This document shows, piece after piece, positions 1,721 to 16,827 of a stretch of 20,411 nucleotides of DNA. The DNA is from a virus. The notes under the pieces were generated by a model. That model was not told the origin of the DNA, searched no databases, and saw only the letters and a list, made by a program, of their open reading frames with translations. The stretch spans positions 1-20,411 of IMG/VR virus record IMGVR_UViG_3300025769_001103; one strand, 5' to 3'. The position numbers and the translations under genes were made by a program. Numbering within the stretch: the stretch's first letter is position 1; every line of letters begins with the position of its first letter.

Positions 1721-3149
1721 GTCTTCTGTAGCACATCAACCACCTGAATCTGTAGAACAAAATGCTGTATTTAAACCTAATGATGGCCCTCAAACAGAGT
1801 TTTTAGAGGCAGCAGAACGAGAAGTATTGTATGGTGGTGCAGCAGGCGGTGGCAAGTCTTTCGCTATGTTAGCTGATCCTGTACGTTATTTTTCCCACCC
1901 TGATTTCAGTGGGCTATTGCTTAGACATACAACGGAAGAACTTAGAGAACTTATTTTTAAGTCTCAAGAGATGTATCCTAAAGCAGTTCCGGGCATTAAG
2001 TGGTCCGAAAGAAAAATGCAGTGGACTGCGCCTTCCGGTGCGCGATTGTGGATGTCTTATCTGGATAGAGATGAAGACGTATTGCGTTATCAGGGTCTAG
2101 CATTTAGCTGGATAGGCTTTGATGAGTTGACTCAGTGGGCTACACCTTATGCGTGGGACTACATGCGATCTCGTCTACGGTCCACTGCTCCAGATTTACC
2201 TGTATACATGCGGGCTACAACCAATCCGGGCGGCAGAGGGCATCATTGGGTTAAGAAAATGTTTCTTGATCCTGCACCACCAAACAGCAGATTTGTAGCT
2301 ACTAATATTGAAACGGGTGAAGACTTAAACTATCCGGCAGGTCATGCTAAAGCAGGAAAGCCTTTATTTAAAAGAAGGTTTATACCTGCTAAACTAATGG
2401 ATAATCCGTATCTAGCTGAAAGCGGTGATTATGAAGCAATGCTTCTTTCTTTGCCGGAGCAACAAAAAAGACAGCTACTAGACGGCGATTGGGACATTAA
2501 AGAAGGTGCAGCGTTTACGGAATTTAATAGAAACCTTCATGTCGTTGAGCCATTTGACATACCAAATAATTGGGTTAAGTTTCGTGCTTGTGACTATGGC
2601 TACGGTTCATATAGTGGCGTGTTATGGTTTGCCGTAAGCCCAGATGAACAACTAATTGTATACAGAGAATTATACGTATCTAAAGTATTAGCTACAGACT
2701 TAGCTGATATGGTATTAGAACTAGAAGCAGAAGATGGAAATATTAGATATGGTGTTCTTGATAGCTCTTTATGGCATAAAAGAGGTGATACTGGACCTTC
2801 GCTGGCGGAACAAATGATTAGTAAGGGCTGTCGTTGGAGGCCGTCTGATCGCAGTAAAGGTAGTAGAGTAGCAGGTAAAAACGAAGTTCATCGTAGGCTT
2901 CAGGTAGATGAGTTTACAGAAGAACCTAGATTAATCTTTTTTAATAATTGTACAAATATGGTATCCCAATTACCTGCCCTGCCTATTGACAAGAAAAACC
3001 CTGAAGATATTGATACTCACTCAGAAGATCACTTGTATGATGCTTTACGTTACGGTATAATGTCGAGACCACGCTTTAGTATTTTTGAGTTTGATACACA
3101 GATGCCCAGAAATACTCATACACCAGCCGATGCTGTATTTGGATATTAA
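1563..3149 (+). CDS. terL: Terminase large subunit (packaging ATPase and nuclease)
   Basis: This 528-residue protein pumps DNA into the prohead and cuts it. The ATPase half has the Walker A loop GGAAGGGKS (residues 91-99), Walker B FSWIGFDE (181-188, Asp187/Glu188) and the coupling motif ATTNPGG (218-224). The nuclease half has an RNase H-like fold, with acidic residues at Asp344 (RACDYG), Asp400 (YGVLD) and Asp493 (LYDALRY). Length and motif order are normal. The start is uncertain: ATG at 1563 has GGG four bases upstream, and ATG at 1614 (residue 18) would also work, but the family-like region begins near residue 33. Either start leaves a dual-coding overlap with the preceding gene. The first 35 residues are very basic. 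Confidence 0.93.
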   Translation: MSESVKTKLIASASGQRMSKRRSPKRKNLKKKDSTPEQTLHAAELLKNPQKIESSVAHQPPESVEQNAVFKPNDGPQTEFLEAAEREVLYGGAAGGGKSFAMLADPVRYFSHPDFSGLLLRHTTEELRELIFKSQEMYPKAVPGIKWSERKMQWTAPSGARLWMSYLDRDEDVLRYQGLAFSWIGFDELTQWATPYAWDYMRSRLRSTAPDLPVYMRATTNPGGRGHHWVKKMFLDPAPPNSRFVATNIETGEDLNYPAGHAKAGKPLFKRRFIPAKLMDNPYLAESGDYEAMLLSLPEQQKRQLLDGDWDIKEGAAFTEFNRNLHVVEPFDIPNNWVKFRACDYGYGSYSGVLWFAVSPDEQLIVYRELYVSKVLATDLADMVLELEAEDGNIRYGVLDSSLWHKRGDTGPSLAEQMISKGCRWRPSDRSKGSRVAGKNEVHRRLQVDEFTEEPRLIFFNNCTNMVSQLPALPIDKKNPEDIDTHSEDHLYDALRYGIMSRPRFSIFEFDTQMPRNTHTPADAVFGY

Positions 3150-3160
3150 AGGAATTATAA

Positions 3161-5302
3161 ATGGCTATTGAAGAAGACGATTTTCTAATCGAAGAGATAG
3201 GCGTAGCAGCAGAAGATGTGGATAACGTAGATGAAGTAGACTACGGTTATACGCCTATTCTTAGGTATATTAATGACAAATACGAAAAGGCTAAAACCTA
3301 CCGTTTTACGGAAGAGCAGCGCTGGTTAAAATCTTATCGTAATTACAGAGGCATTTATGGTCCTGACGTTCAGTTTATGGAAACAGAAAAATCTCGTGTA
3401 TTTATTAAAATTACTAAAACTAAAACACTTGCAGCATATGGTCAAATTGTAGATGTACTATTTGGTAATCAGCGTTTTCCTATTACTATTGATCCTACAG
3501 TATTACCCGAAGGTGTAGAAGACACGGTACACTTTGATCCGTCGCTTCCTGATGAACTTAAAGAAGAAGGTCCAGTAGAACAAGATAGCCCGTATGGTTT
3601 TGCCGGTGATGGTAAAGAACTTCCGGCTGGTGCTACATTAAACTCTTTAATGTTGGGTTCTATGGAAGAAAAGTTAAATGATGTAAAAGGTCTTAAACAA
3701 GGTCCGGGTACAACGCCGTCAGCTATTACGTTTCATCCTGCTATGGTTGCAGCAAAGAAAATGCAGAAGAAAGTTATGGATCAATTACAAGAATGTAATG
3801 CTTCTAAACATCTTCGCAGTACATCTTTTGAAATGGCGTTATTTGGTACAGGTGTACTAAAAGGTCCATTTGCTGTAAATAAAGAATACGCAAACTGGGA
3901 TGATGAGGGTACGTACACACCAACCATTAAAACTGTACCTCAAATTGGTCATGTAAGTGTCTGGAACTTCTATCCAGACCCAGATGCAAACAATATGGAA
4001 GAAGCTCAGTACGTCGTAGAGCGTCATAAGATGAGCCGCAGCCAATTACTTAACCTTAAAAAGCGGCCTCTCTTTAGAGGTAACGTCATTGACCAGTGTA
4101 TTGAGCAGGGTGAATCCTACGTAAAAGAATGGTGGGAAGATGATCTTGCTGATTATGAACAAACACATAGCATTGATCGTTTTGAGGTTTTAGAGTATTG
4201 GGGTGTAATTGATACAGACCTTCTTGATGATGAAGACATAGATATTCCAGAAGAACTTGCAGATGCAGATCAAGTGCAAGCTAATATCTGGACAGTTAAT
4301 GGTCAAGTTATTCGTCTTGTAATTAATCCGTTTAAGCCTGTACGTATTCCATATATGGCAGCACCGTATGAATTAAATCCATACAGCTTCTTTGGTGTAG
4401 GCATTGCTGAAAATATGGAAGACACACAAATTCTTATGAATGGCTTTATGAGAATGGCAGTAGATAATGCTGTACTGTCTGGCAATCTTCTTATTGAAGT
4501 AGACGAAACTAATCTAACGCCGGGTCAAGACCTCAGTGTTTATCCCGGTAAAGTGTTTCGTCGTCAGGGTGGTGCGCCCGGACAGGCAATCTTTGGTACT
4601 AAGTTTCCAAATGTTGCGGGTGAAAACCTACAGCTATTTGATAAAGCTAGACAGCTTGCTGATGAAAGCACCGGCTTTCCTTCTTTCGCGCACGGACAAA
4701 CAGGTGTGTCGGGTGTAGGTAGAACTGCTAGTGGCATTAGTATGCTTATGGGCGCAGCAGCAGGCAGTATTAAGAACGTCATTAAGAATGTAGACGACTA
4801 CCTATTAAAGCCTCTTGGTGACGGTCTATTCCAGTTTAATATGCAGTTCTCTTTTGATAAAGATATTAAGGGTGATCTTGAAGTTAAGGCACGTGGCACA
4901 GAAAGTCTGATGGCTAATGAAGTACGTAGTCAACGCCTCATGCAATTTATTCAAGTTACTAGCAATCCAGCACTTGCACCTTTTGCAAAAATGGATTATA
5001 TTATTACTGAGATTGCCAGATCACTTGATCTTGATCCTGAAAAGGTTGTCAACAATATGGGTGACGCAGCACTTCAGGCAGAGATGATGAAGGCGTGGCA
5101 AGCAACTCAGCCACCACCGCCACAACAGGGCGCTCCAGCAGGAGCTAATCCTCAAGACCCAACGGGTGCAGGTGGTGGAAACATTGGTGTAGGTATGGCA
5201 CCCGGACCACAAGAACAAGGATTCTCAGGTAATGAACAACAACAGCCAGCAGAAGGCGGAGCGCCTCAAAGCGCTGGTCAGCAACCCCCACCTGTGGGCT
5301 AA
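3161..5302 (+). CDS. Portal protein
   Basis: This 713-residue protein would form the dodecameric ring through which DNA enters and leaves the head. It follows the large terminase by 11 nt with an AAAGGA ribosome-binding site. It starts with an acidic arm (EEDDFLIEE), then a helix with RWLKSYRNYRGIYG, and a long mixed alpha/beta body containing GTGVLKGPF, WNFYPDPDA and a TGFPSFAHGQTG to GISMLMGAAAGSIKN segment typical of portal stem and crown regions. The end (about 648-713) is a Pro/Gln/Gly-rich low-complexity tail, probably disordered. Length is near that of large podovirus portals. Position and these segments together make the call firm even though no catalytic motif exists for portals. Confidence 0.85.
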   Translation: MAIEEDDFLIEEIGVAAEDVDNVDEVDYGYTPILRYINDKYEKAKTYRFTEEQRWLKSYRNYRGIYGPDVQFMETEKSRVFIKITKTKTLAAYGQIVDVLFGNQRFPITIDPTVLPEGVEDTVHFDPSLPDELKEEGPVEQDSPYGFAGDGKELPAGATLNSLMLGSMEEKLNDVKGLKQGPGTTPSAITFHPAMVAAKKMQKKVMDQLQECNASKHLRSTSFEMALFGTGVLKGPFAVNKEYANWDDEGTYTPTIKTVPQIGHVSVWNFYPDPDANNMEEAQYVVERHKMSRSQLLNLKKRPLFRGNVIDQCIEQGESYVKEWWEDDLADYEQTHSIDRFEVLEYWGVIDTDLLDDEDIDIPEELADADQVQANIWTVNGQVIRLVINPFKPVRIPYMAAPYELNPYSFFGVGIAENMEDTQILMNGFMRMAVDNAVLSGNLLIEVDETNLTPGQDLSVYPGKVFRRQGGAPGQAIFGTKFPNVAGENLQLFDKARQLADESTGFPSFAHGQTGVSGVGRTASGISMLMGAAAGSIKNVIKNVDDYLLKPLGDGLFQFNMQFSFDKDIKGDLEVKARGTESLMANEVRSQRLMQFIQVTSNPALAPFAKMDYIITEIARSLDLDPEKVVNNMGDAALQAEMMKAWQATQPPPPQQGAPAGANPQDPTGAGGGNIGVGMAPGPQEQGFSGNEQQQPAEGGAPQSAGQQPPPVG

Positions 5303-5450
5303 TTTTGTAGAGTATTTAGATTATCACATAGAACAGCAGCATAAAGTGTTAGAACAATCTGAGTGTTCTGTTGGTGTACAAAGAGCGCAGGGCTACATTC
5401 AAGCACTTAGAAAATTAAAGTCTTTGGATAATATAGTTAAGAGGGATTAA
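5232..5450 (+). CDS. Small helical phage protein overlapping the portal 3' end
   Basis: A 72-residue protein read in a different frame from the portal, whose last 71 nt it shares. The sequence looks like a real folded helical hairpin: HLWANFVEYLDYHIEQQHKV and VQRAQGYIQALRKLKSLDNI. Small proteins of this form (LW..F..YLD, then RAQG.I.ALR.L) occur directly after the portal in other podoviruses I know of. No function is established; a chaperone or connector accessory role is possible. The N-terminal 24 residues fall in the overlap and correspond to the portal's disordered Pro/Gln tail, which would tolerate dual coding. Its stop lies 4 nt before the TTG start of the next gene. Confidence 0.7.
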   Translation: MNNNSQQKAERLKALVSNPHLWANFVEYLDYHIEQQHKVLEQSECSVGVQRAQGYIQALRKLKSLDNIVKRD

Positions 5451-5454
5451 TTAC

Positions 5455-7659
5455 TTGAGTGAGGATAAAGCTGAAGCAGGTGAAAAAGATTTTTTTGCTA
5501 TTGGTTTAGGGGATGATGTTGCTTTTGTTCCTACTGATGTATTTGCAAGATATGTAAAATCTAAAACACCAAAAAATCAGGATGGCATATTTACAAAAAA
5601 TAACACCTTTAATGTTGAAGGGGGCGCAGAAATTAGGCTCCCGAACAATAACACAATTCGTTTCGAGGGTAGAGTTAGGCGCACTAAGGGTAAAGTTTTA
5701 TTCCCTGAAAAATTACAAAACAAATATGGGCTACCTCCTGAAGAGACATTTAAAGATAGGGGTACTAATGTAGGTGCGTTTTATAGTAAGCAAAATAAAG
5801 ATGAAAACATTGGGGGCAGTGTTGGCTTAAACTATGACGCTGAGGCAGGAAAGTTTAGAGAATTTAACGCTTCTGGTTTTTTAAGAAATATTTTTGGAAA
5901 CGATAGTCTTAAAGCTTCTGCAAGCTTTAACCCAACAAATAAAAAAGCATCGGGAAAGCTTGAATACACTTCAAAATTTAATGACGGAGGATTGACTATG
6001 AACAAACAAATGGAATTATTTGAAGAGGGTGGTGAAGTTGATCCCGTATCCGGCAATGATGTACCATTAGGTAGCACGGAAAAAGAAGTACGTGATGACC
6101 AGCCTGCTATGCTTAGTGAAGGTGAGATGGTAGTTCCTGCTGACGTTGTTCGTTATTTTGGTGTTGAGCATTTTATGAAGCTTCGAGATGAAGCTAAAAT
6201 GGGCTACAAGAAAATGGAGGCTATGGGTCAATTTGGTACAGATGAAGGAAAAACATTACCAGACGACACACTATTTAATGCAGGTGGTCCACCTTTTACA
6301 ATTGAGGATATTGAGGTTATTGAACCTGACGACTTAGAAAGCTTAGAAGGTGGCGAAGAAGATACTTTAGAAGCTAATGCAGGTGCCTTTGTTCAAGGAG
6401 GGCAGGGAACTAACCCTTTTGATAATAATGCTGCTACAACAGCAGGGCAACAATTTGCATCAGGAAAACCTATAACAGCTAGTAGCTTTAGTCAGCCTGC
6501 TTTTACATTTGATAGTTTTAAAGGTTTTTCTGGTCTTACTTCTGACTATATTCAAAGTTTTTTACCTGATGCTTTTAAAAATAAAAAACCAGAACAGGCT
6601 AGTCTAGCTACTAACATATTAGATACATTTTATGGAAATAAGCTACCACAACAAGCTCAAGGAGCTTCCACAAAGTCTGGTCAAAGTGATGTACCAGATG
6701 GAGGAGGAACATCTGATCTTTCTAGTGCTACACCCGGTATAGGATCAGTAAGTGAACTAGCGGGTAATGCTAGTACAGCTAGTGTAAACTCTCTTGCCGG
6801 ATTAGGTCAAATGTTAGACACTCCTGTTGGGCGTGGTGTTTTAGACGCTGTTGGTTATGCTACTAGTTTTGCAATGACCCCATCAACAGGCATTGTTAGT
6901 GGGCTTATGAGGGGAGCATCTGCGCTTAGTCCTACTATAAGTAAGGGTTTTCGAGATTTACAAGATATAGGTCGAATAGACGCAGCCAGAGCGGCAAATG
7001 CAGCATTGGCTATGAAAGCTGAGTTTGCAGCTTTAAGCCCGGCAGAAATTGCAGACATAAACACCCTTGCTGCATTTAACTCTATAAGTAATGTTACAGG
7101 TTACGACCCTACAGTAGACCCCGCTGTTAGTGCTGTTGGTGTAACTTCTATGGGAGTACCCGGATATTCTGTAGCAGGACCGCTCGGTGCAACATATGGA
7201 TGGAACAACGACTTTGGCTGGGAAGTTGTAGCAGACCCACTTAGTACAAAAGACCTTGATAAAGCTAAACAAAAACAAGATTCTATTAACCAAATAGGTA
7301 CTGAGGCTGCTGCCGTTGGCGCAGTGGATGTTGATCCTAGTGGATCAGAAGGTCTTGCAGGTCCTCCGGGCGGTCAAAATGAACCAAGTCCAAACCAAAG
7401 TCCTAGTCCTAGCTTTGGCGATCAAGAATATGGTGGTGGTCCCGATCAAGATGACGGCCCAGAAGCAGATGGGGGTGCTGTAGGCGGAACGGATAATGAT
7501 GCTGACGGAGACGATACTGGTGGTCCAGATGGAGAAGGAGAAGGAGAAGATGGTGGTCCAGAAGGTATAGCTAAAGGAGGATTAATCAAGCGTAAACCAC
7601 GAAACAAAAAAAGAGGCGGAAGAAAGAGAAAGAAAAGAGGGGGTTTAGGTTCCCGATAG
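5455..7659 (+). CDS. Virion-associated protein of unknown function, 734 residues
   Basis: The TTG start at 5455 has GAGGGA (5441-5446) 8 nt upstream. Residues 1-181 are rich in short polar beta-like segments (GGAEIRLPNNNTIRFEGRV, GGSVGLNYDAEAGKF, KASGKLEYTSKFNDGG). From residue 182 the sequence MNKQMELFEEGGEVDP and then RDDQPAMLSEGEMVVPADVV with MKLRDEAKMG and KKMEAMGQ matches a family I recall downstream of portals in marine podoviruses, where proteins commonly begin at this Met. The middle (about 310-620) is Ser/Gly/Ala-rich. Residues about 640-700 are acidic and Gly-rich, and the last 30 are very basic (KRKPRNKKRGGRKRKKRGG). A packaged or tail-internal protein is plausible; I do not assign a function. 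Confidence 0.72.
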   Translation: MSEDKAEAGEKDFFAIGLGDDVAFVPTDVFARYVKSKTPKNQDGIFTKNNTFNVEGGAEIRLPNNNTIRFEGRVRRTKGKVLFPEKLQNKYGLPPEETFKDRGTNVGAFYSKQNKDENIGGSVGLNYDAEAGKFREFNASGFLRNIFGNDSLKASASFNPTNKKASGKLEYTSKFNDGGLTMNKQMELFEEGGEVDPVSGNDVPLGSTEKEVRDDQPAMLSEGEMVVPADVVRYFGVEHFMKLRDEAKMGYKKMEAMGQFGTDEGKTLPDDTLFNAGGPPFTIEDIEVIEPDDLESLEGGEEDTLEANAGAFVQGGQGTNPFDNNAATTAGQQFASGKPITASSFSQPAFTFDSFKGFSGLTSDYIQSFLPDAFKNKKPEQASLATNILDTFYGNKLPQQAQGASTKSGQSDVPDGGGTSDLSSATPGIGSVSELAGNASTASVNSLAGLGQMLDTPVGRGVLDAVGYATSFAMTPSTGIVSGLMRGASALSPTISKGFRDLQDIGRIDAARAANAALAMKAEFAALSPAEIADINTLAAFNSISNVTGYDPTVDPAVSAVGVTSMGVPGYSVAGPLGATYGWNNDFGWEVVADPLSTKDLDKAKQKQDSINQIGTEAAAVGAVDVDPSGSEGLAGPPGGQNEPSPNQSPSPSFGDQEYGGGPDQDDGPEADGGAVGGTDNDADGDDTGGPDGEGEGEDGGPEGIAKGGLIKRKPRNKKRGGRKRKKRGGLGSR
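5986..6000 (+). promoter_or_regulatory. Probable internal translation start (GGAGG, 7 nt, ATG)
   Basis: GGAGG at 5986-5990 lies exactly 7 nt before an in-frame ATG at 5998-6000, inside the 734-residue gene. It is a better Shine-Dalgarno and start pair than the TTG at 5455. Initiation here would give a 553-residue product beginning MNKQMELF, which is where related proteins seem to start. Confidence 0.6.
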
Positions 7660-7744: not shown

Positions 7745-8608
7745 ATGTCTGAAGTAGATACCGTACAGGTAGAAAAAAAGAAAGCCTTTATTAGTCGTCC
7801 GTATTCCAATGAGGACCGTATTAAGAAGGACGAAGAAGAACTAGAAGAAATGCTACGCCAACAAAAGGGTGAAGTGTCCGAAGAAGAAGAAGAACAAGAA
7901 GCAGAACCCACTACCGCTGAAGAGCGTTCATTTAAAAAGAGATATGGTGACTTACGTAGACACACACAGAAACAGCAGGAAGACCTACAGTCTCAAATTA
8001 GTGAATTAAAGGAACAGCTTACGTCTGCCACTAAAAAGGAGATGAAGCTACCTAAATCAGACGATGAGATTGATGTGTGGATGTCTAAGTATCCAGACGT
8101 AGCGGCCATCGTAGAAACGATTGCAATTAAGAAAGCAAGAGAACAATCTACAGAATTAGAAGAGCGTGTAACTAAAATTAATAAGATGCAAGAAGACGCA
8201 GAGCGTCAAAAGGCAGAAACTATTTTACTACAGTTACACCCAGATTTCGATGAGATCAGGCAGGACGATGACTTCCACACGTGGGCAGAAGAACAGCCAC
8301 GTTGGATTCAACAAGCCCTGTACGACAATGACGATGATGCTAAATCAGCAGCCAGAGCCATTGATTTATATAAGGCAGACAAAGGTATTAATACCAAAAA
8401 GAAAAGCAAGCGTTCTAGTGACGCCGCTGAAATGGTAGATACCAAAGCCTCACGTAATCGGCCTACAGCCGAAGATACTTCGGGCGTCATTAGAGAATCA
8501 GACGTTCAGAAGATGTCAGCTACACAGTACGAAAAGAATCAAGATACTATTATGGAAGCTATCCGTTCAGGAAAGTTTGTATATGATCTTTCTGGTTCAG
8601 CACGTTAA
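7745..8608 (+). CDS. Capsid scaffolding protein
   Basis: This 287-residue protein lies directly before the major capsid gene, the usual place for a scaffold that guides shell assembly and is then removed. It is highly charged and almost entirely helical: an acidic stretch around residues 30-55 (EEELEEMLRQQKGEVSEEEE), a coiled coil at about 60-105 (KKRYGDLRRHTQKQQEDLQS), a central part with a conserved-looking MSKYPDVAAIVETIA, and HPDFDEIRQDDDFHTWAEEQ. The C-terminal part (KKKSKRSSDAAEMV and the end GKFVYDLSGSAR) is basic, as in scaffolds that contact the capsid protein through the C-terminus. No protease gene is visible nearby. The ribosome-binding site (AGAGAAAG) is weak. Confidence 0.82.
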   Translation: MSEVDTVQVEKKKAFISRPYSNEDRIKKDEEELEEMLRQQKGEVSEEEEEQEAEPTTAEERSFKKRYGDLRRHTQKQQEDLQSQISELKEQLTSATKKEMKLPKSDDEIDVWMSKYPDVAAIVETIAIKKAREQSTELEERVTKINKMQEDAERQKAETILLQLHPDFDEIRQDDDFHTWAEEQPRWIQQALYDNDDDAKSAARAIDLYKADKGINTKKKSKRSSDAAEMVDTKASRNRPTAEDTSGVIRESDVQKMSATQYEKNQDTIMEAIRSGKFVYDLSGSAR

Positions 8609-8854: not shown

Positions 8855-9910
8855 ATGGCATTTTCAGCAGCAGCAGGACACGGCAACCTACCTAATGGTG
8901 CATTTAGTCCTGTAATTTATTCTAAGCAGGTGCAGCTTGCGTTCCGTAAGTCATCTGTATGTGAAGAGATCACCAACTCTGATTATTTTGGTGAAATTGC
9001 TAATATGGGTGACACCGTTCGCATTATTAAGGAGCCTGAAATCTCCGTTAAAGCGTACACTCGTGGCACCGTTATTACACCTCAAGACCTAGACGATGAA
9101 GACTTCAGCCTCACGGTTGATAAGTCTAACTACTTTGCTTTTAAGGTTGACGACATTGAAGAAGCACATTCTCATGTCAACTTCCAGTCACTAGCTTCTG
9201 ATCGTGCGGCTTTCCGCCTATCGGATCAGTATGACCAAGACGTTCTTGGTTATCTTTGTGGCTTTAAGCAGTCTGCACTGCACAGTGTTGCTAGTGCTGT
9301 TAACACTACTGTTAACGGTGAAGTTGCTGTTGCAACTGCTGGCACAGACGAACTACTTTCTAGCATGAAGATTGAAGCCGACGACTTCGGTGGTTCTTCA
9401 GGAAGTGCTATTGGTATTAAGGCTCGTGCTGGTAATGATGGTGCAGTCGTTGGTTCTGGTAATGCTTATGCTATTCAGGTTATTTCCCGTATGGCTCGTA
9501 AGCTTGACCAACAGAATGTTGATTCAAACGGTCGTTGGCTCGTTATTGATCCAGTCTTTAAGGAAATTCTTCAGGACGAAGACTCCAGACTATTCAACAG
9601 CGACTTCGGCGGTTCTGGTCTTCAGAATGGTCTAGTTCTAAACAACCTACTTGGCTTTAAAGTATATGTTTCTAACAACCTACCTTCGATTGGTACAGGT
9701 TCCTCCACAACTGGTGGTACTAATGCTTCTAACTTTGGTGTTGTTGTTGGGGGTCACTCTTCAGCCGTAGCTACTGCCGAACAAATTAACAAAACAGAAA
9801 CCTATCGTGATCCAGATAGCTTTGCTGATGTTGTTCGTGGTATGCACCTTTATGGCCGCAAGATTCTTCGTCCCGAAGCTCTTGTTAATGCCAAAATTTG
9901 CTTAGTATAA
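8855..9910 (+). CDS. Major capsid protein
   Basis: This 351-residue protein would build the icosahedral shell, presumably with the HK97 fold. Position after the scaffold, strong ribosome-binding site, dedicated promoter and length all fit. The N-terminus NGAFSPVIYSKQVQLAFRKS, then DYFGEIANMGDTVRIIKEPE and the TPQDLDDEDFSLTVDKSNYF segment with FKVDDIEEAHSHV, resemble coat proteins of T7/P22-like and marine podoviruses. WLVIDPVFKEIL, NNLLGFKVYVSNNLP and the end DPDSFADVVRGMHLYGRK are also typical. Arg codons are almost all CGT or CGC (13 of 14 by my count), unlike the AGA-rich terminase, as expected for a very highly expressed gene. Confidence 0.92.
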   Translation: MAFSAAAGHGNLPNGAFSPVIYSKQVQLAFRKSSVCEEITNSDYFGEIANMGDTVRIIKEPEISVKAYTRGTVITPQDLDDEDFSLTVDKSNYFAFKVDDIEEAHSHVNFQSLASDRAAFRLSDQYDQDVLGYLCGFKQSALHSVASAVNTTVNGEVAVATAGTDELLSSMKIEADDFGGSSGSAIGIKARAGNDGAVVGSGNAYAIQVISRMARKLDQQNVDSNGRWLVIDPVFKEILQDEDSRLFNSDFGGSGLQNGLVLNNLLGFKVYVSNNLPSIGTGSSTTGGTNASNFGVVVGGHSSAVATAEQINKTETYRDPDSFADVVRGMHLYGRKILRPEALVNAKICLV

Positions 9911-10920: not shown

Positions 10921-13900
10921 ATGGCTGTATTAGCTAATAGAGTACGTGTTAACACTAGCACTACTGGAACGGGAACTATAACACTCGGATCAGCAGTATC
11001 AGGATTTCAGTCTTTTGCTGATGGTGGTGTATCAAATAGTGATTCAGTTAGGTATCTAATTGAAGACGGTACTAATTGGGAAATTGGTACGGGTACATAC
11101 ACGTCTAGTGGTACGACACTAAGCAGAGGTGCATACGATAGCACTAACTCTAACAATGCCCTTTCTTTAACGGGTAATGCTATCGTATCTATTGTTTCTG
11201 CTGCTGAAGACTTTTCTGCTGCCACAATTCGTGCATCAGTAGAAGCAGCTTCAGACTCTAATGTTTTTACTGATGCAGATCACACTAAGCTAAACGGCAT
11301 AGAAGCTTCAGCTACAGCAGATCAGACTGACGCTGAAATTAGGGCCGCAGTAGAAGCTGCATCTGACTCTAATGTATTTACTGACGCAGATCACTCTAAG
11401 TTAAATGGCATAGAAGCTTCAGCTACAGCAGATCAGACTGATGCAGAAATTAGAGCAGCAGTAGAGGCAGCATCAGATTCAAATGTATTCACAGATGCTG
11501 ACCATAGTAAGTTAAATGGTATTGCTGCATCAGCAAACAACTACGTCCACCCAGACCACAGCGGCGAGGTAACATCTTCAGCAGACGGTGCTACAGTAGT
11601 AGCTGACAATATTATTGACGAAGCTAATCTAAAGGTTAGCAATAGTCCAACTAACGGGTACGTATTAACTGCACAATCGGGTAATACTGGAGGACTAACG
11701 TGGGCTGAAGCTAGTAGTGGTGCTTCAGCTATTGATGATTTATCTGATGCAGTAACCTACAGCAGCGGAAAAGAAATAGGCATCGGGGCAGGCGCGCTTG
11801 ACTCAAGCAACGGAGTCAACGCAAACGAAAACACAGCCGTTGGTTACAATGCTGGTACTGCTTTAACTAGCGGGCAGGCTTCAACTTTCTTTGGAGCGAG
11901 TGCTGGTAGTTCTGTAACTACGGGATCATCAAATAATATAATTGGTAAATCTGCCGGAATAAATATAACCACGACTGGTAATAATAACTTTATGGGTTCG
12001 TTTGCAGGTTACTCTGTGACCGGCGCAAACAATGTTGCAATTGGCGCTAATGCTATGCTCGGTGGCTGGAGTGGTGGTTCAAGTGTAGATAAAACTGTTG
12101 CTATTGGTACAGATACTTTGTCTGCCAATCAAACTTCCGCAGAAGACACTGTAGCTATTGGTTATCAGGCACTTTATAGTGGAACATCTGCTGACGATTC
12201 TGTTGCTATTGGTGCAACGGCAGCTAGAGCAAATACAACAGGTACCAAATTAGTAGCTATTGGTTTTGAAGCCCTCAAAGCAAACACTACTGCTGCTGGA
12301 AGTGTTGCAATTGGGTATCAATCCGCACTAAAAGCAACTACTGCTAGTAATAGCATAGCTATTGGTTATGCAACTATGGGAACAGGCGTTGTTACTGGGA
12401 CAGATAACACCGCTATTGGTCGTCAGGCTGGTAACGATTTAACCAGTGGCACCTATAATAATTTTATGGGCTATCGGGCCGGATATAACGCAACTACTGC
12501 GGACAATACGATTGCTATCGGCAGACAAGCGATTGGTAGTGGCGTTCTAACTGGTGAGAGTAATATCGCTATTGGCCGTCTTGCTGGCTATGATTTAACC
12601 AGCGGCACTTACAATTTCTTTGGTGGCTATAATGCAGGCGGCAACGCAACTACTGGTAATTATAATATCGCTCTTGGGTATTCACCAATCGGCGTAGGTG
12701 TTCTAACTGGCACGGATAACATCGCTATTGGCCGTCAAGCTGGTAACGATATCAGTAGTGGCAATTACAACGTCGCTGTTGGTTATAGAGCAGGCTACGA
12801 AGTTACGACTGGGGTGGACAATACAATTTTGGGTGTACAGGCTGGCGATGTCTTAACGACAGGCGGCAATAACACCATTATCGGTCACGATGCCGCCGCT
12901 TCATCTGCCACCGTCAGCAATGAAATTACACTAGGCAATACCAGCGTAACTAAATTTAGAGTACCGGGTCTTAACTTCATCATTAAAGACAGCACTGCTA
13001 CGGAAGATTATGTGTTGACCGTTGACTCTAGCGGTGAGGCAGGATGGGAAGCTGCTGCTGCTGGAGGTGCTTCAGAAATCAATGGCCTTAGTGATGGTGT
13101 TACCAACTCATCTGGTGGTACTCTTGGTCTCGGAACAGGCGCACTTGCTGCTGATGATGGTAGTGCTAACAAGAATACTGCGGTGGGTAAAAACGCTTTA
13201 AACGACGTTACTACCGGCGCTTCAAATGATGCTTTTGGTAATGAGGCGGGAGCGCTAATCACGACTGGCACTACAAATTTAGCTATTGGCGCTGGTTCTA
13301 TGGCAGCAGTTACTACCGCAGCTAGTAACATCGCAATCGGCAACAGAGCTATGGAAAAAGCTACGGGACAGCATAATGTTTTTGTAGGTAAAAGTTCTGG
13401 TGAAGGCGGTAGCGGAGGTGGTGCGGCAAAAAGGAATGCTGCTTTAGGTTATAGCTCTTTAGAAAAAATAACTTCCGGCGAAGATAATGTAGCAGTCGGA
13501 AATCAAGCTGGCCTCTCAATAGCCAATGGCAATAAGCACGTAATGCTGGGAGGTAATGCAGGTGACGCGTTAACCGCAGGCGAGAACACAATATGTATTG
13601 GTTACAATAGTGCCGCCTCTAGTACCACTGTGTCTAACGAGATTACTTTAGGCAATACGGATATTACTAAGTTTAGAGTACCGGGTCTTAACTTTATTAT
13701 TAAGGACTCTACTGCTACGGACAATTACGTCCTTACCGTAGATTCTAGTGGTGAAGCTGGCTGGGAGGCTGCTGCTGGAGGTGCTACAGAAATTGATGGC
13801 CTTAGTGATGCTAAAACATTTAACTCTGGATCAAGCATAGGTATTGGAACTGGCGCAGCCGCTGCTGTATCAGGTAGTGCATCTTTAACAGCAGTAGGTT

Positions 13901-15264
13901 TTGAAGCAGGAAACGATTCTACTACGGCAATTCTTGCTACATATATTGGTCACGGAGCGGGTTCTAAGGCAACAGGTAGCCGTAACACTATGATTGGTGG
14001 TTTTAACGCAGATCAAAGTAGTTCGGGTACAGCTACAGGTTCGTGGAATACTATTGTCGGCGTTGAAAGTATGCGTAATTTAACGACAGGCCAGCGTAAT
14101 CTTTTTGCAGGTACAAATATAGCTGAAGCAGGGACGACAGCAAGTTACAATGTTGGGGTTGGCGCAACCTCCTTAAATGCTCTTACTACTGGTACTCATA
14201 ATGCAGCTTTAGCTTATCAAAGTTTAGGAAAACTTACTACTGGTACTTACAATATAGGAATAGGACATCAAGCAGCATATAACGCAACTACTCCTACTAA
14301 CACGGTTGCTATTGGCAGAGGCGCTTTAGGTACGGGTGTTCTTACTGGTACTGACAATATTGGTATTGGCAGAGGTGCCGGTGCAGATGTGACCAGTGGC
14401 GAACACAATTTTTTTGCAGGCTTTAATGCAGGTGCTAATGCAACTACTCCAGAAAACACTATTGCTATTGGTTATGGAGCAATAGATACGGGTGTTCTTA
14501 CAGGCGATAGTAATATTGCTATTGGAAAATGGGCAGGGCAGGACTTAACTAGCGGCACCCTTAACTTTTTTGCTGGCTTTAACGCTGCTAGTAACGCAAC
14601 TACAGCGGGTTACAGTGTTGCTATTGGTCCTTACTCTTTAGGCGGTGCATCGGGGAGTGCTGGTACAGCTAGCACCAATACTGCTGTTGGCTATGGTGCG
14701 GGACAAAATGTAACTAGCGGCGGAAACAACGCTTTCTTTGGAGCATACGCAGGTGGTGCTGTGACTACTGGCGCTAACAACACCATCATTGGTAGAGATG
14801 CTGGCGATGCCCTAACAACCGGCGGAAACAACACTCTTATTGGACACGATGCAGCAGCGTCAGCCGTAGGTGTTAGCAATGAGATTACATTAGGCGATGG
14901 CGTCATAAGCGCTTTGCGCTGTCAAGTAACTAGCATATCTGCTTTGTCAGATCGAAGAGACAAGAAAGACATTAAAGAACTGCCAATTGGACTTGACTTT
15001 ATTAACGCACTAAACCCTGTCGAGTTTACGTGGAATATGCGCGATGGTGCAAAGGTAGGCCAAAAAGAAGCTGGGTTTATCGCTCAAGAATTAGACGAAG
15101 CACAACAAGATGCTGGCGTCGAAGAGCTTATGAATCTAGTTTTAAAGAACAACCCAGACAAGCTTGAGGCTGCTCCATCTAAGCTAATTCCTGTATTAGT
15201 TAAGGCTATTCAAGAATTATCTGCTGAAGTTAAAACACTTAAACTTTGTCAATGTAATACATAA
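10921..15264 (+). CDS. Long tail fibre with YadA-head-like repeats and S74 chaperone domain
   Basis: The protein is 1447 residues. Residues 1-99 are a virion-attachment domain common to marine phage fibres ([20 protein letters not shown], then [10 protein letters not shown] and [20 protein letters not shown]). Residues 103-213 hold three tandem 37-residue repeats. From about 268 on there are three large modules of left-handed beta-roll repeats of the form NxAIGxxA..LTSG, as in YadA/Hep-Hag adhesin heads, beginning near residues 268, 716 and 954. The C-terminus from about 1338 is an intramolecular chaperone (Peptidase S74) with SDRRDK: Ser1343 and Lys1348 match the known self-cleaving dyad, giving a 105-residue released piece. 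A homotrimeric host-binding fibre or adhesin is expected. Confidence 0.88.
11227..11559 (+). repeat. Three tandem 111-nt (37-residue) repeats in the fibre
   Basis: Units start at 11227, 11338 and 11449, each encoding [20 protein letters not shown] and then [17 protein letters not shown], with the third diverging after KLNGI. Units differ mainly at synonymous positions. The sequence type (ADQT..EI..A...DSN.FTDADH.KL.GIE) is a common fibre shaft element. Confidence 0.85.
11722..14940 (+). repeat. Triplicated beta-roll modules in the fibre
   Basis: Module 1 starts near 11722, module 2 at 13066 and module 3 at 13780. Each begins with an EI(N/D)GLSD-type hinge (AIDDLSD in module 1) and ends with [14 protein letters not shown]. 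Modules 1 and 2 also share a 45-residue coda including [18 protein letters not shown] and [17 protein letters not shown]. Within modules, 14- to 30-residue units carry NTAIGxxA and LTSGxxNxFxGxxAG. Codas keep their amino acids but differ at most third positions, apart from one 23-nt identical stretch (12955-12977 and 13672-13694). Confidence 0.8.
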
Positions 15265-15501: not shown

Positions 15502-16827
15502 ATGCCTGCTTTTTCACCTTTAGCCACTACACCTCTAGCGCATACAACTTTAATTTTTGCTAGTTCTGTAAGTGCTACAGGTGTAGCAGGTACATCTGCT
15601 GTAGGTACTTTAACTACAAGTTTAACAAAAGCACTTACTAATGTAGTAGGTACAACTGCTGTTGGTTCTGTAGTTACACCTCAGACAAAAGCACTGACGG
15701 GTGTAGCAGGAACAACCGCTGTAGGTACTTTAGGTACAACTATAGCTCCTGTAGTTATAACAGGTGTAGCAGGAACAACTGCCGCTGGTTCAGTTAATGT
15801 TCTTTCTGGCGGTGTGTCAATTACGGGCGTAATTGGTACTACCTCTGTAGGCTCTCTTAGCTTTACGTCTACAAACAATATAACACTTAGTGGTACTTCT
15901 AGTACAGGCAGTGTTGGTTCACTAACAACCGCTTTAGACGTAGCTCTATCTAGTGTGTCTGCTACGAGTTCTGTAGGTACAGTAAGTGCTACTGTAAGTG
16001 AGGCTGTTTCACTAGTAGGCGTAGCTGCAACATCTAGTGTTGGTTCTGTTACCCTAACGGCAACTAGTAACATTACTGCAAACGGTGTAACAGGTACATC
16101 AAGTGTAGGTTCTATCGGGGGTAGTGTTTCTAAAGCCCTCACTGCTGTAGCTGCAACATCTAGTGTTGGTTCTATTCAGACTAGCTTAGTTAAAGCACTT
16201 ACTGGAGTAACGGGTACTTCAAGCGTTGGTTCTGTTACACCAACATCCTCTAGTAATATTACCGTAAGCGGTGTATCAGCTACTTCAAGCGTAGGTTCTG
16301 TTTCACTTACTGTAGTTTCAACTGTTTCAATAACAGGTGTAGTAGGCACTACCGCAGTATCCGCTGTCACATCTTTACTTACTACTAATGTAGCGTCCGT
16401 ATCTGCAACAGGTTCTATTGGTTCTTTAACTATTGAAGTTAATAGTACAGTAGAGGTATCACAAGATAGCTTAATTTCTTCAGTAGGTAGTGTTAGTAGT
16501 TCTATAGAAACAAATGTTACTGGTGTTTCTTCTACTATATCTTTAGGTACTGTATCTTTAGAGGTAAATACTAATATTGAAGTTGTAGGTGTATCAGCAA
16601 CACATAGTATTGGTATACTAAAGACTAACATAGTAAAAATACTTACTGGCAATGTTTCTACTTTTGCAGTGGGTTCTGTAGGTGTAGCTAATGACTTTAC
16701 ACTTTCAAGTGTTTCGGGTACTATAAGTACTAACAGTGTTACCGCATCTGGTGTAACCTTTAACTTTAATAATGTTAAAACACTATACAGTAGAAAACGC
16801 TGTGTATATGTACCGAGAGCCGCATAA
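15502..16827 (+). CDS. Beta-repeat structural protein (20/22-residue repeats)
   Basis: A 441-residue protein made of about 18 repeats between residues 27 and 405, with consensus GV.[GA]T[ST].VG[ST][VL] followed by 10-12 Thr/Ser/Val-rich residues. Most units are 20 or 22 long. Val, Ser, Thr and Gly dominate, and there is almost no charge until the basic end SRKRCVYVPRAA (residues 430-441). This would suit a beta-solenoid fibre or a Velcro-like coat protein on the virion. Proteins of this design with a VYV.R end occur in marine phages and cyanophages near fibre genes. Its stop overlaps the next ATG by 1 nt. Confidence 0.7.
   Translation: MPAFSPLATTPLAHTTLIFASSVSATGVAGTSAVGTLTTSLTKALTNVVGTTAVGSVVTPQTKALTGVAGTTAVGTLGTTIAPVVITGVAGTTAAGSVNVLSGGVSITGVIGTTSVGSLSFTSTNNITLSGTSSTGSVGSLTTALDVALSSVSATSSVGTVSATVSEAVSLVGVAATSSVGSVTLTATSNITANGVTGTSSVGSIGGSVSKALTAVAATSSVGSIQTSLVKALTGVTGTSSVGSVTPTSSSNITVSGVSATSSVGSVSLTVVSTVSITGVVGTTAVSAVTSLLTTNVASVSATGSIGSLTIEVNSTVEVSQDSLISSVGSVSSSIETNVTGVSSTISLGTVSLEVNTNIEVVGVSATHSIGILKTNIVKILTGNVSTFAVGSVGVANDFTLSSVSGTISTNSVTASGVTFNFNNVKTLYSRKRCVYVPRAA
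15580..16750 (+). repeat. About 18 degenerate 60/66-nt coding repeats
   Basis: Each unit encodes 20-22 residues around TSSVGS. Some units are near-identical in DNA: 16021-16047 and 16147-16173 share 27 nt exactly, 126 nt (two units, 22+20 codons) apart. Others have drifted (for example the unit starting QDSLISSVGS). Confidence 0.8.

What the first reader, a model, noticed from the sequence alone, without database searches (positions are those of the whole stretch)
5455..7659. Probable two-product gene: internal start inside the 734-residue protein
A GGAGG-7 nt-ATG signal at 5986-6000 lies in frame. The downstream protein (553 residues, MNKQMELFEEGG...) begins where I recall homologues starting. 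The upstream start is a TTG with GAGGGA. The gene may express a long and a short form, as in phages that make nested scaffold or tail proteins.
Basis: partly seen in the sequence, partly recalled or inferred. Interest (0 to 1): 0.55.

Follow-up and report, generated by a model that had tools for sequence, protein, structure and literature searches.

The report
Swappable front end on phage protein
In this ocean-phage gene a replaceable front piece has been joined in frame to a conserved protein whose old start signal still sits at the seam, so the phage may make the protein with and without the front piece, although only an experiment can show that the short form exists.

Summary
Chance alone gives such a motif (1 found, 1.56 expected), but this one lies where relatives start their gene. 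The window is a fragment of an HMO-2011-type marine phage. From codon 182 runs a conserved core; 59 of 132 related loci start at or near it, 73 carry N-terminal extensions, mostly unrelated to the window's. Extensions behave as cassettes: L021 matches the window at 95% upstream and 91% downstream but lacks it; L022 and L030 share one (99.5%) although their portals are 80% alike. In seven relatives the cassette is a separate gene. For a short product: the seam ATG is kept in 45 of 48 fused genes and 0 of 4 split ones, apparently one clade. Against: seam codons are not tuned towards Shine-Dalgarno pairing, and cassette turnover alone could keep the ATG. Two products are plausible, unproven. The broader find is a cassette-exchange seam in a probably virion-associated protein.

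The parts
3161..5302 (+). portal protein gene (713 aa)
   Evidence: PHROG portal and head-tail adaptor matches; relatives' portals used as background in the tree
5232..5450 (+). small 72-aa ORF overlapping the portal end, in the position of HMO-2011 gp50 and CRP-2 gp59
   Evidence: translated; annotated counterparts by position
5441..5446 (+). GAGGGA, native ribosome-binding site: before the core start in cassette-less L021, before the TTG here
5455..5997 (+). N-terminal cassette, codons 1-181, TTG start; orphan module
   Evidence: absent from L021, an unrelated 194-codon cassette in L022; frame open where 0 of 20000 shuffles are; no Pfam hit and one PHROG hit of E 0.055 only
5986..5990 (+). 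GGAGG, Shine-Dalgarno-like, also codons for the Gly-Gly of the seam FNDGGLTM
5998..6000 (+). internal in-frame ATG, at the gene start of cassette-less relatives
5998..6285 (+). conserved core (NKQMELF ... DPVSGN ... VRDD ... LSEGEMVVPADVVRYFG ... MEAMGQ)
   Evidence: alignments A1, A4, A5
6363..7548 (+). C-terminal region, replaced in L022 (but alignable over most of its length in L021)
7549..7659 (+). basic, glycine-rich C-terminal tail, alignable again in L022 and L021
   Evidence: sequence
7745..8608 (+). next gene (287 aa), scaffold-like by position only
   Evidence: PHROG 13678, function unknown; lies before the major head protein gene at 8855

Best explanation
The 734-codon gene is an in-frame fusion of an interchangeable N-terminal cassette (codons 1-181) to a conserved core protein of HMO-2011-type phages. 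The cassette lies between the gene's native ribosome-binding site (which now starts the long form at TTG 5455) and the core's own start codon (ATG 5998), which stays at the seam behind a Gly-Gly-coding stretch that can act as a ribosome-binding site. Shown by comparison: presence, absence and exchange of cassettes with sharp borders at these two points; seam ATG at the homologous start; split versions of related cassettes. Inferred: the long form is the main product; the seam ATG is still used to some degree, so that a cassette-free core (553 aa) is also made; the core is a virion-associated, probably internal or ejected protein, and cassettes are cargo that acts at entry or early in infection.
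For: Sharp borders: window and L021 are 95% identical over 1955-5451 and 91% over 6004-7383, with nothing in L021 for 5452-6003. L022 and L030 share a cassette (99.5% aa) with portals 80% identical. Portal tree of 110 loci (57 extended, 53 not; quick method): at least 27 changes of state, 11 forced by starred branches. Of 115 loci with a portal in the contig, 54 have no extra DNA and 61 do; of these 53 are fused in frame through the stretch, 5 are split, 3 are unclear; two more look split on cut contigs. The five split cassettes are homologous to fused ones. In L070 the cassette ends KSKGGLI-stop, overlapping the ATG of the separate core gene, so the same kind of GGTGGA there precedes a gene start. 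Seam ATG kept in 45 of 48 fused, 0 of 4 split. Residue -3 before QM is Met in 39 of 51 extended loci, against 7 of 30 cassette-less genes whose start lies further upstream. Spacing GGNGG-ATG is 7 nt in 26 and 10 nt in 10 of 39 seams.
Against: No product was observed. Hybridisation to the anti-Shine-Dalgarno is weaker than for synonymous recodings (mean -8.25 against -9.41; 39 sites, summed z +3.0), match length 4.72 against 5.02 expected. First-Gly codon GGA is 4 of 46 at seams, 62 of 569 elsewhere. Nine fused non-redundant loci have no QM motif at the seam; 10 of 61 representatives (three of them split) have no ATG with a Shine-Dalgarno match of 4 or more near the core start. The 0 of 4 rests on what is apparently one clade. 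Frequent gain and loss of cassettes alone could keep the ATG. Virion location is inferred from gene order.
Confidence: 0.55

Rival explanations
1. Vestige. Only the long form matters. The seam ATG and GGAGG are remains of the original gene start, kept because cassettes are gained, lost and exchanged often; the Gly-Gly is a linker motif of the protein.
For: Codon choice does not favour Shine-Dalgarno pairing. At least 27 changes of cassette state among 110 loci. Identical seam DNA in window and L022 despite unrelated cassettes suggests exchange at the seam. 53 of 61 loci with extra DNA keep the fusion in frame, so the fused chain seems to be selected. Residue -3 is M, I, L or V in 50 of 51 extended loci, so a hydrophobic residue may be what is wanted.
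Against: ATG kept in 45 of 48 fused against 0 of 4 split genes; Met at -3 in 39 of 51 extended against 7 of 30 non-start positions of cassette-less genes; local RNA folding at the seam is slightly weaker than in synonymous recodings (mean z +0.37 at 39 seams; -0.43 at 156 control ATGs).
Confidence: 0.35
2. The seam Gly-Gly is a processing site: a protease cuts there and releases the cassette from the core, so two products arise from one start.
For: The motif F/Y/L/M-N/A-x-GG is found 39 times at seams and 12 times elsewhere in 18,613 residues of non-redundant extensions, for example FNEGGLAE inside the CRP-9 extension. Polyvalent proteins are thought to be processed by zincin-like metallopeptidases (abstract passage of PMC5512222); split cassettes L095, L103 and L108 show weak metallopeptidase similarity (DUF6782, below the cut-off).
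Against: No protease was looked for or seen in the window's own genes; Gly-Gly pairs are common elsewhere in these ORFs (569 other pairs); a linker explains the motif as well.
Confidence: 0.1
3. The upstream TTG is not used and the cassette is not translated; only the 553-aa form is made.
For: TTG is generally a weak start codon (recalled); the downstream ATG has the stronger-looking ribosome-binding site (longest match 5 nt against 4).
Against: The cassette frame is open over 181 codons (0 of 20000 composition-preserving shuffles; 7 and 36 stops in the other two frames); other cassettes at the same place are open and in frame with the core in 53 of 61 loci with extra DNA; some encode recognisable enzymes.
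Confidence: 0.04

Closest known systems
Polyvalent proteins of phages and conjugative elements (Iyer et al. 2017, PMC5512222; abstract and passages seen)
   Same: Gene among virion genes; related cassettes carry lysozyme or cell-wall hydrolase, LPD23 and methyltransferase domains; modules are shuffled.
   Different: The window's own cassette matches no known domain; here the modules are attached to one conserved core at one seam that mostly keeps a start codon; packaging was not tested.
In-frame nested phage genes with an internal start (lambda C/Nu3, T7 4A/4B; recalled, from no call)
   Same: A second in-frame start with a ribosome-binding site inside a longer ORF.
   Different: Here the upstream part is absent in nearly half of the relatives, differs between close relatives and is sometimes a separate gene; no product has been detected.
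Crassvirus cargo protein gp45 (PMC10172136, passages seen)
   Same: A protein stored in capsid and tail, with a portal-bound domain, thought to be ejected at infection: a model for what the core could do.
   Different: Only 2 of 89 core members match the Pfam crassvirus cargo model, best E 0.074, not significant.
Tail tape measure proteins
   Same: The core gives matches to a PHROG tape-measure family in 60 of 89 members, best E 1.4e-6.
   Different: The window's own core has no hit at E 0.01; the relatives are podovirus-like (one record is titled Podoviridae sp.; otherwise recalled).

Membership tests
Polyvalent protein | two or more disparate effector domains in one chain | tested here: not met
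   Window protein: no Pfam and no PHROG hit for the whole chain at E up to 1. Relatives: 9 Pfam families among 55 extensions scanned.
Polyvalent protein | gene in the neighbourhood of virion genes | tested here: met
   Between the portal and major head protein genes.
Polyvalent protein | packaged in the virion and delivered to the host | not testable with these tools
   Needs virion proteomics.
Dual-start (nested in-frame) gene | in-frame internal start with ribosome-binding site | tested here: met
   but the bare motif is at chance frequency in the window.
Dual-start (nested in-frame) gene | internal start conserved beyond what the protein sequence demands | tested here: inconclusive
   ATG retention speaks for it, the codon-level Shine-Dalgarno tests against it.
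Dual-start (nested in-frame) gene | two products detected | not testable with these tools
   Needs peptide or ribosome data.
Tape measure or ejection protein | homology to a characterised member | tested here: inconclusive
   PHROG tape-measure matches in relatives but not in the window's core; best PDB sequence match E 0.036; core model of low confidence (pLDDT 65.0).

The most novel reading that the evidence does not exclude
A plug-in seam: the Gly-Gly codons at the seam double as a ribosome-binding site for the core's own start codon, so that any cassette inserted in frame gives both a cargo-bearing chain and an unburdened core. Cassette exchange then never costs the phage its core protein, which would explain why cassettes from tens to over a thousand residues turn over so fast in this widespread marine phage group.
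Probability: 0.35. Interest if true: 0.72.

Novelty: new variant of a known kind. Interest (0 to 1): 0.5.

Why it matters
HMO-2011-type phages are described as dominant and broadly distributed in the ocean (start of the abstract of PMC9038755, as listed). The gene next but one to their portal gene proves to be a hot spot where modules, some of them cell-wall hydrolases, are swapped onto one conserved protein. If the seam makes two products, it shows how a phage can try new cargo without losing a needed protein. Either way it warns annotators not to trust a single start in this gene, and it points to a source of probably delivered effector domains to test.

Tried and rejected
Cassette structure: AlphaFold with 3 sequences gave mean pLDDT 45.1 and 0 PDB matches at E 0.001 or below; my first impression of a beta-barrel-like strand pattern is not supported. 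Core structure: pLDDT 65.0; 7 matches at E 0.001 or below in the viral library, 45-58% identical, so probably the same family. The cassette elsewhere: 3 near-identical viral contigs, none in bacterial genome contigs (58 pattern matches, 0 relatives), no relation to any other extension of the set. Substitution test of coding in the cassette: window against L003 differ in 10 codons (4 synonymous, 6 not), against L002 in 4 (1 and 3), against L001 in none; too few to judge. Third-position GC around the seam shows nothing clear (0.25, expected 0.30, control ATGs 0.23).

Papers. A virion proteome of a relative: in the listings of searches I recognised none; in PMC6256558 the one hit for 'proteom' is in the reference list. 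A description of this variable gene: listings of two searches and the passages shown for chosen terms in PMC9038755 and PMC6918029 mention none; no more than that was checked, and no paper was read whole. Searches 31 (0 papers), 64 and 80 for internal starts or variable N-termini in phage virion proteins gave nothing that I used.

Limits. Loci L139-L151 from bacterial genome contigs were fetched but not analysed. The pattern for the QM anchor missed the seam of CRP-2 (L006), which does have an ATG; it is counted, where the pattern was widened. Seven loci that repeat contigs already held (L004, L018, L019, L020, L060, L078, L123) were dropped before the counts. The Fisher test printed used a hand count (7 of 34) and is replaced (7 of 30). 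Extensions L072, L118 and L137 were left out of the 55 scanned. The portal tree is of the quick kind; 36 of 95 inner branches are weak, and the cassette state is more clustered on it than shuffled labels (27 changes against a mean of 36).

Full report
What is there. The ORF 5455-7659 begins with TTG, has 734 codons, and lies between the portal gene and a gene that is scaffold-like by position, followed by the major head protein gene. GGAGG 5986-5990, a 7-nt spacer and ATG 5998-6000 are as reported. A motif of that kind is expected 1.56 times in the window and found once, so on its own it means nothing; its place has to be judged by relatives. The window is a whole virus record of 20,411 bases, a fragment; the annotated relatives of the gene are HMO-2011, Roseobacter CRP phages and one Podoviridae sp. 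record. A 72-aa ORF (5232-5450) overlaps the portal end and has annotated counterparts in the same place in HMO-2011 and CRP-2; its stop ends 4 bases before the TTG.

Relatives. Three scans of viral contigs, the window's own record and 13 of 14 phage-record hits (the one left out is a second copy of HMO-2011) gave 138 loci that encode the core, with the window 139. After dropping 7 loci that repeat contigs already held, 59 of 132 start the gene at the core or fewer than 20 residues before it, and 73 of 132 carry an extension of 20 residues or more; the latter reduce to 61 non-redundant ones of 20 to 1072 residues. Deposited annotations agree: HMO-2011, CRP-1, CRP-345 and CRP-603 start near the core; CRP-2, CRP-9, CRP-13, CRP-207 and ctYwJ313 are annotated with long extensions. 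CRP-3, CRP-212, CRP-235 and CRP-738 also have extensions, but without the QM motif at the seam.

The extension is a cassette. Window and L021 align at 95% over 1955-5451 and at 91% over 6004-7383; L021 has nothing in place of 5452-6003. L022, 92-95% identical to the window on both sides, holds an unrelated cassette between the same two borders, with the same start (TTACTTGAGT) and seam (GACGGAGGATTGACTATGAACAA) DNA. L022 and L030 have a nearly identical cassette (99.5% aa) while their portals are 80% identical: a recent transfer. On a quick portal tree of 110 loci the state changes at least 27 times, 11 of them forced by starred branches; shuffled labels need 36 on average, so the state is still partly inherited. 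Fifty pairs with portals at least 95% identical differ in cassette state; the pairs are not independent. Of 61 loci with extra DNA between portal and core, 53 keep it open and in frame with the core throughout, 5 have it as a separate ORF, 3 are unclear (L033 frame-broken, L133 portal frame-broken, L137 short).

What cassettes encode. In 55 extensions scanned (of 58 of 30 residues or more), Pfam finds Phage_lysozyme2 in 3, LysM, DUF7178, LPD23 (large polyvalent protein domain) and a phage L5 gp82 family in 2 each, and Hydrolase_2 (cell wall hydrolase), Phage_lysozyme, SinI and a methyltransferase in 1 each; PHROGs adds several endolysin families. Such domains, peptidoglycan-cutting ones among them, are described for polyvalent proteins (PMC5512222, passages). 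The window's own cassette has no usable match and no relation to any other extension in the set, so its activity is unknown; a role at entry or early in infection is inferred from the others.

Split versions. In L070, L095, L103, L108 and L109 a cassette ORF of 518-834 aa stands directly before a separate core ORF; L102 and L104, cut contigs, look the same. The five cassettes are homologous to fused ones: L095, L103, L108 and L109 to L066, L076 and L073 (24-32% identity); L070 to L130, L125, L094 and L077 (43-58% in the best piece). In L070 the cassette ends in KSKGGLI and its stop overlaps the ATG of the core gene, so GGTGGA of the Gly-Gly codons lies at ribosome-binding distance from a gene start. 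So cassette and core can be two polypeptides.

The seam. By a strict pattern it reads Gly-Gly, two residues, Met in 26 and Gly-Gly, three residues, Met in 10 of 61 non-redundant extended loci; 3 more have a Met before QM without or closer to the Gly-Gly (1 with 4-nt spacing, 2 without Gly-Gly), CRP-2 was missed by the pattern, and the rest differ.

Is the internal start in use? For: an ATG with a Shine-Dalgarno match of at least 4 nt within 8 codons of the core start in 51 of 61, against 12.5% of random placements; hybridisation energy of -5 or lower at 39 of 39 seam ATGs against 15% of 901 other internal ATGs in the same ORFs; ATG in the six codons before QM in 45 of 48 fused against 0 of 4 split genes (Fisher p 0.00013, but the split ones are apparently one clade: L103, L108 and L109 group on the portal tree, L102 has no portal); Met at -3 in 39 of 51 extended loci against 7 of 30 cassette-less genes in which that residue is not the start. 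Against: with the amino acids held fixed, codons at the seam do not favour Shine-Dalgarno pairing, rather the reverse; the first Gly is GGA in 4 of 46 seams and 62 of 569 other pairs. The second Gly is GGA more often (29 of 46 against 143 of 569), which I cannot interpret because the seams share ancestry. Nine fused loci have no QM motif at the seam. Folding around the seam ATG is slightly weaker than in synonymous recodings. The window's own seam was represented by L003 (one base different in the 21 tested) and is identical in its last 15 bases to L022; both give -9.5, with five of the 39 seams stronger. The 16S tail used is recalled and general, since the host is unknown. I judge a used internal start somewhat more likely than not in this lineage; a selected function of the short form is less certain.

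Function of the core. It is conserved (A4: 89 sequences, mean column identity 50%), with matches to a tape-measure PHROG in 60 of 89 members, no significant PDB relative and a low-confidence model. By position, basic tail and cassette content an internal or ejected virion protein is the best guess; nothing here tests it.

Verdict. Observation confirmed; interpretation partly supported. The larger finding is a cassette-exchange site with a recurrent seam in HMO-2011-type phages.

Noticed in passing
L108:2345-4345, L095:1847-4351, L109:2358-4334, L103:2436-4316, L070:2507-4063: Separate cassette proteins begin with a short stretch like that of the core (LNDQMDTLF, LNDQMNTLF, VNEQMDEML, LKEQTEKAF, LTEQMQEA; core of HMO-2011: LNKQMELF). 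Of 48 extended ORFs, 7 (two of them, L070 and L104, really core starts) have QM followed by E, D, Q, N, S or K in their first 20 residues, against 1.2% of other windows: possibly a portable packaging tag.
   Followed up: partly
window 5232-5450 (+): 72-aa ORF overlapping the portal end, with annotated counterparts in place in HMO-2011 (gp50) and CRP-2 (gp59); below the length limit of my first ORF listing.
   Followed up: partly
window 6363-7548 (+): The C-terminal part of the same protein is also replaced between window and L022, so the chain varies on both sides of the core.
   Followed up: no
window 15502-16827 (+): 441-aa ORF of near-tandem GVTGTSSVGSV-type repeats, with long open frames on the opposite strand.
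   Followed up: no
window 10921-15264 (+): 1447-aa protein with many AIG-type repeats and an end that resembles an intramolecular chaperone domain (recalled, not tested): perhaps a tail fibre.
   Followed up: no
L033:583-3326: The cassette of the L034 family is broken into two frames in L033; a sequencing error or real decay.
   Followed up: no
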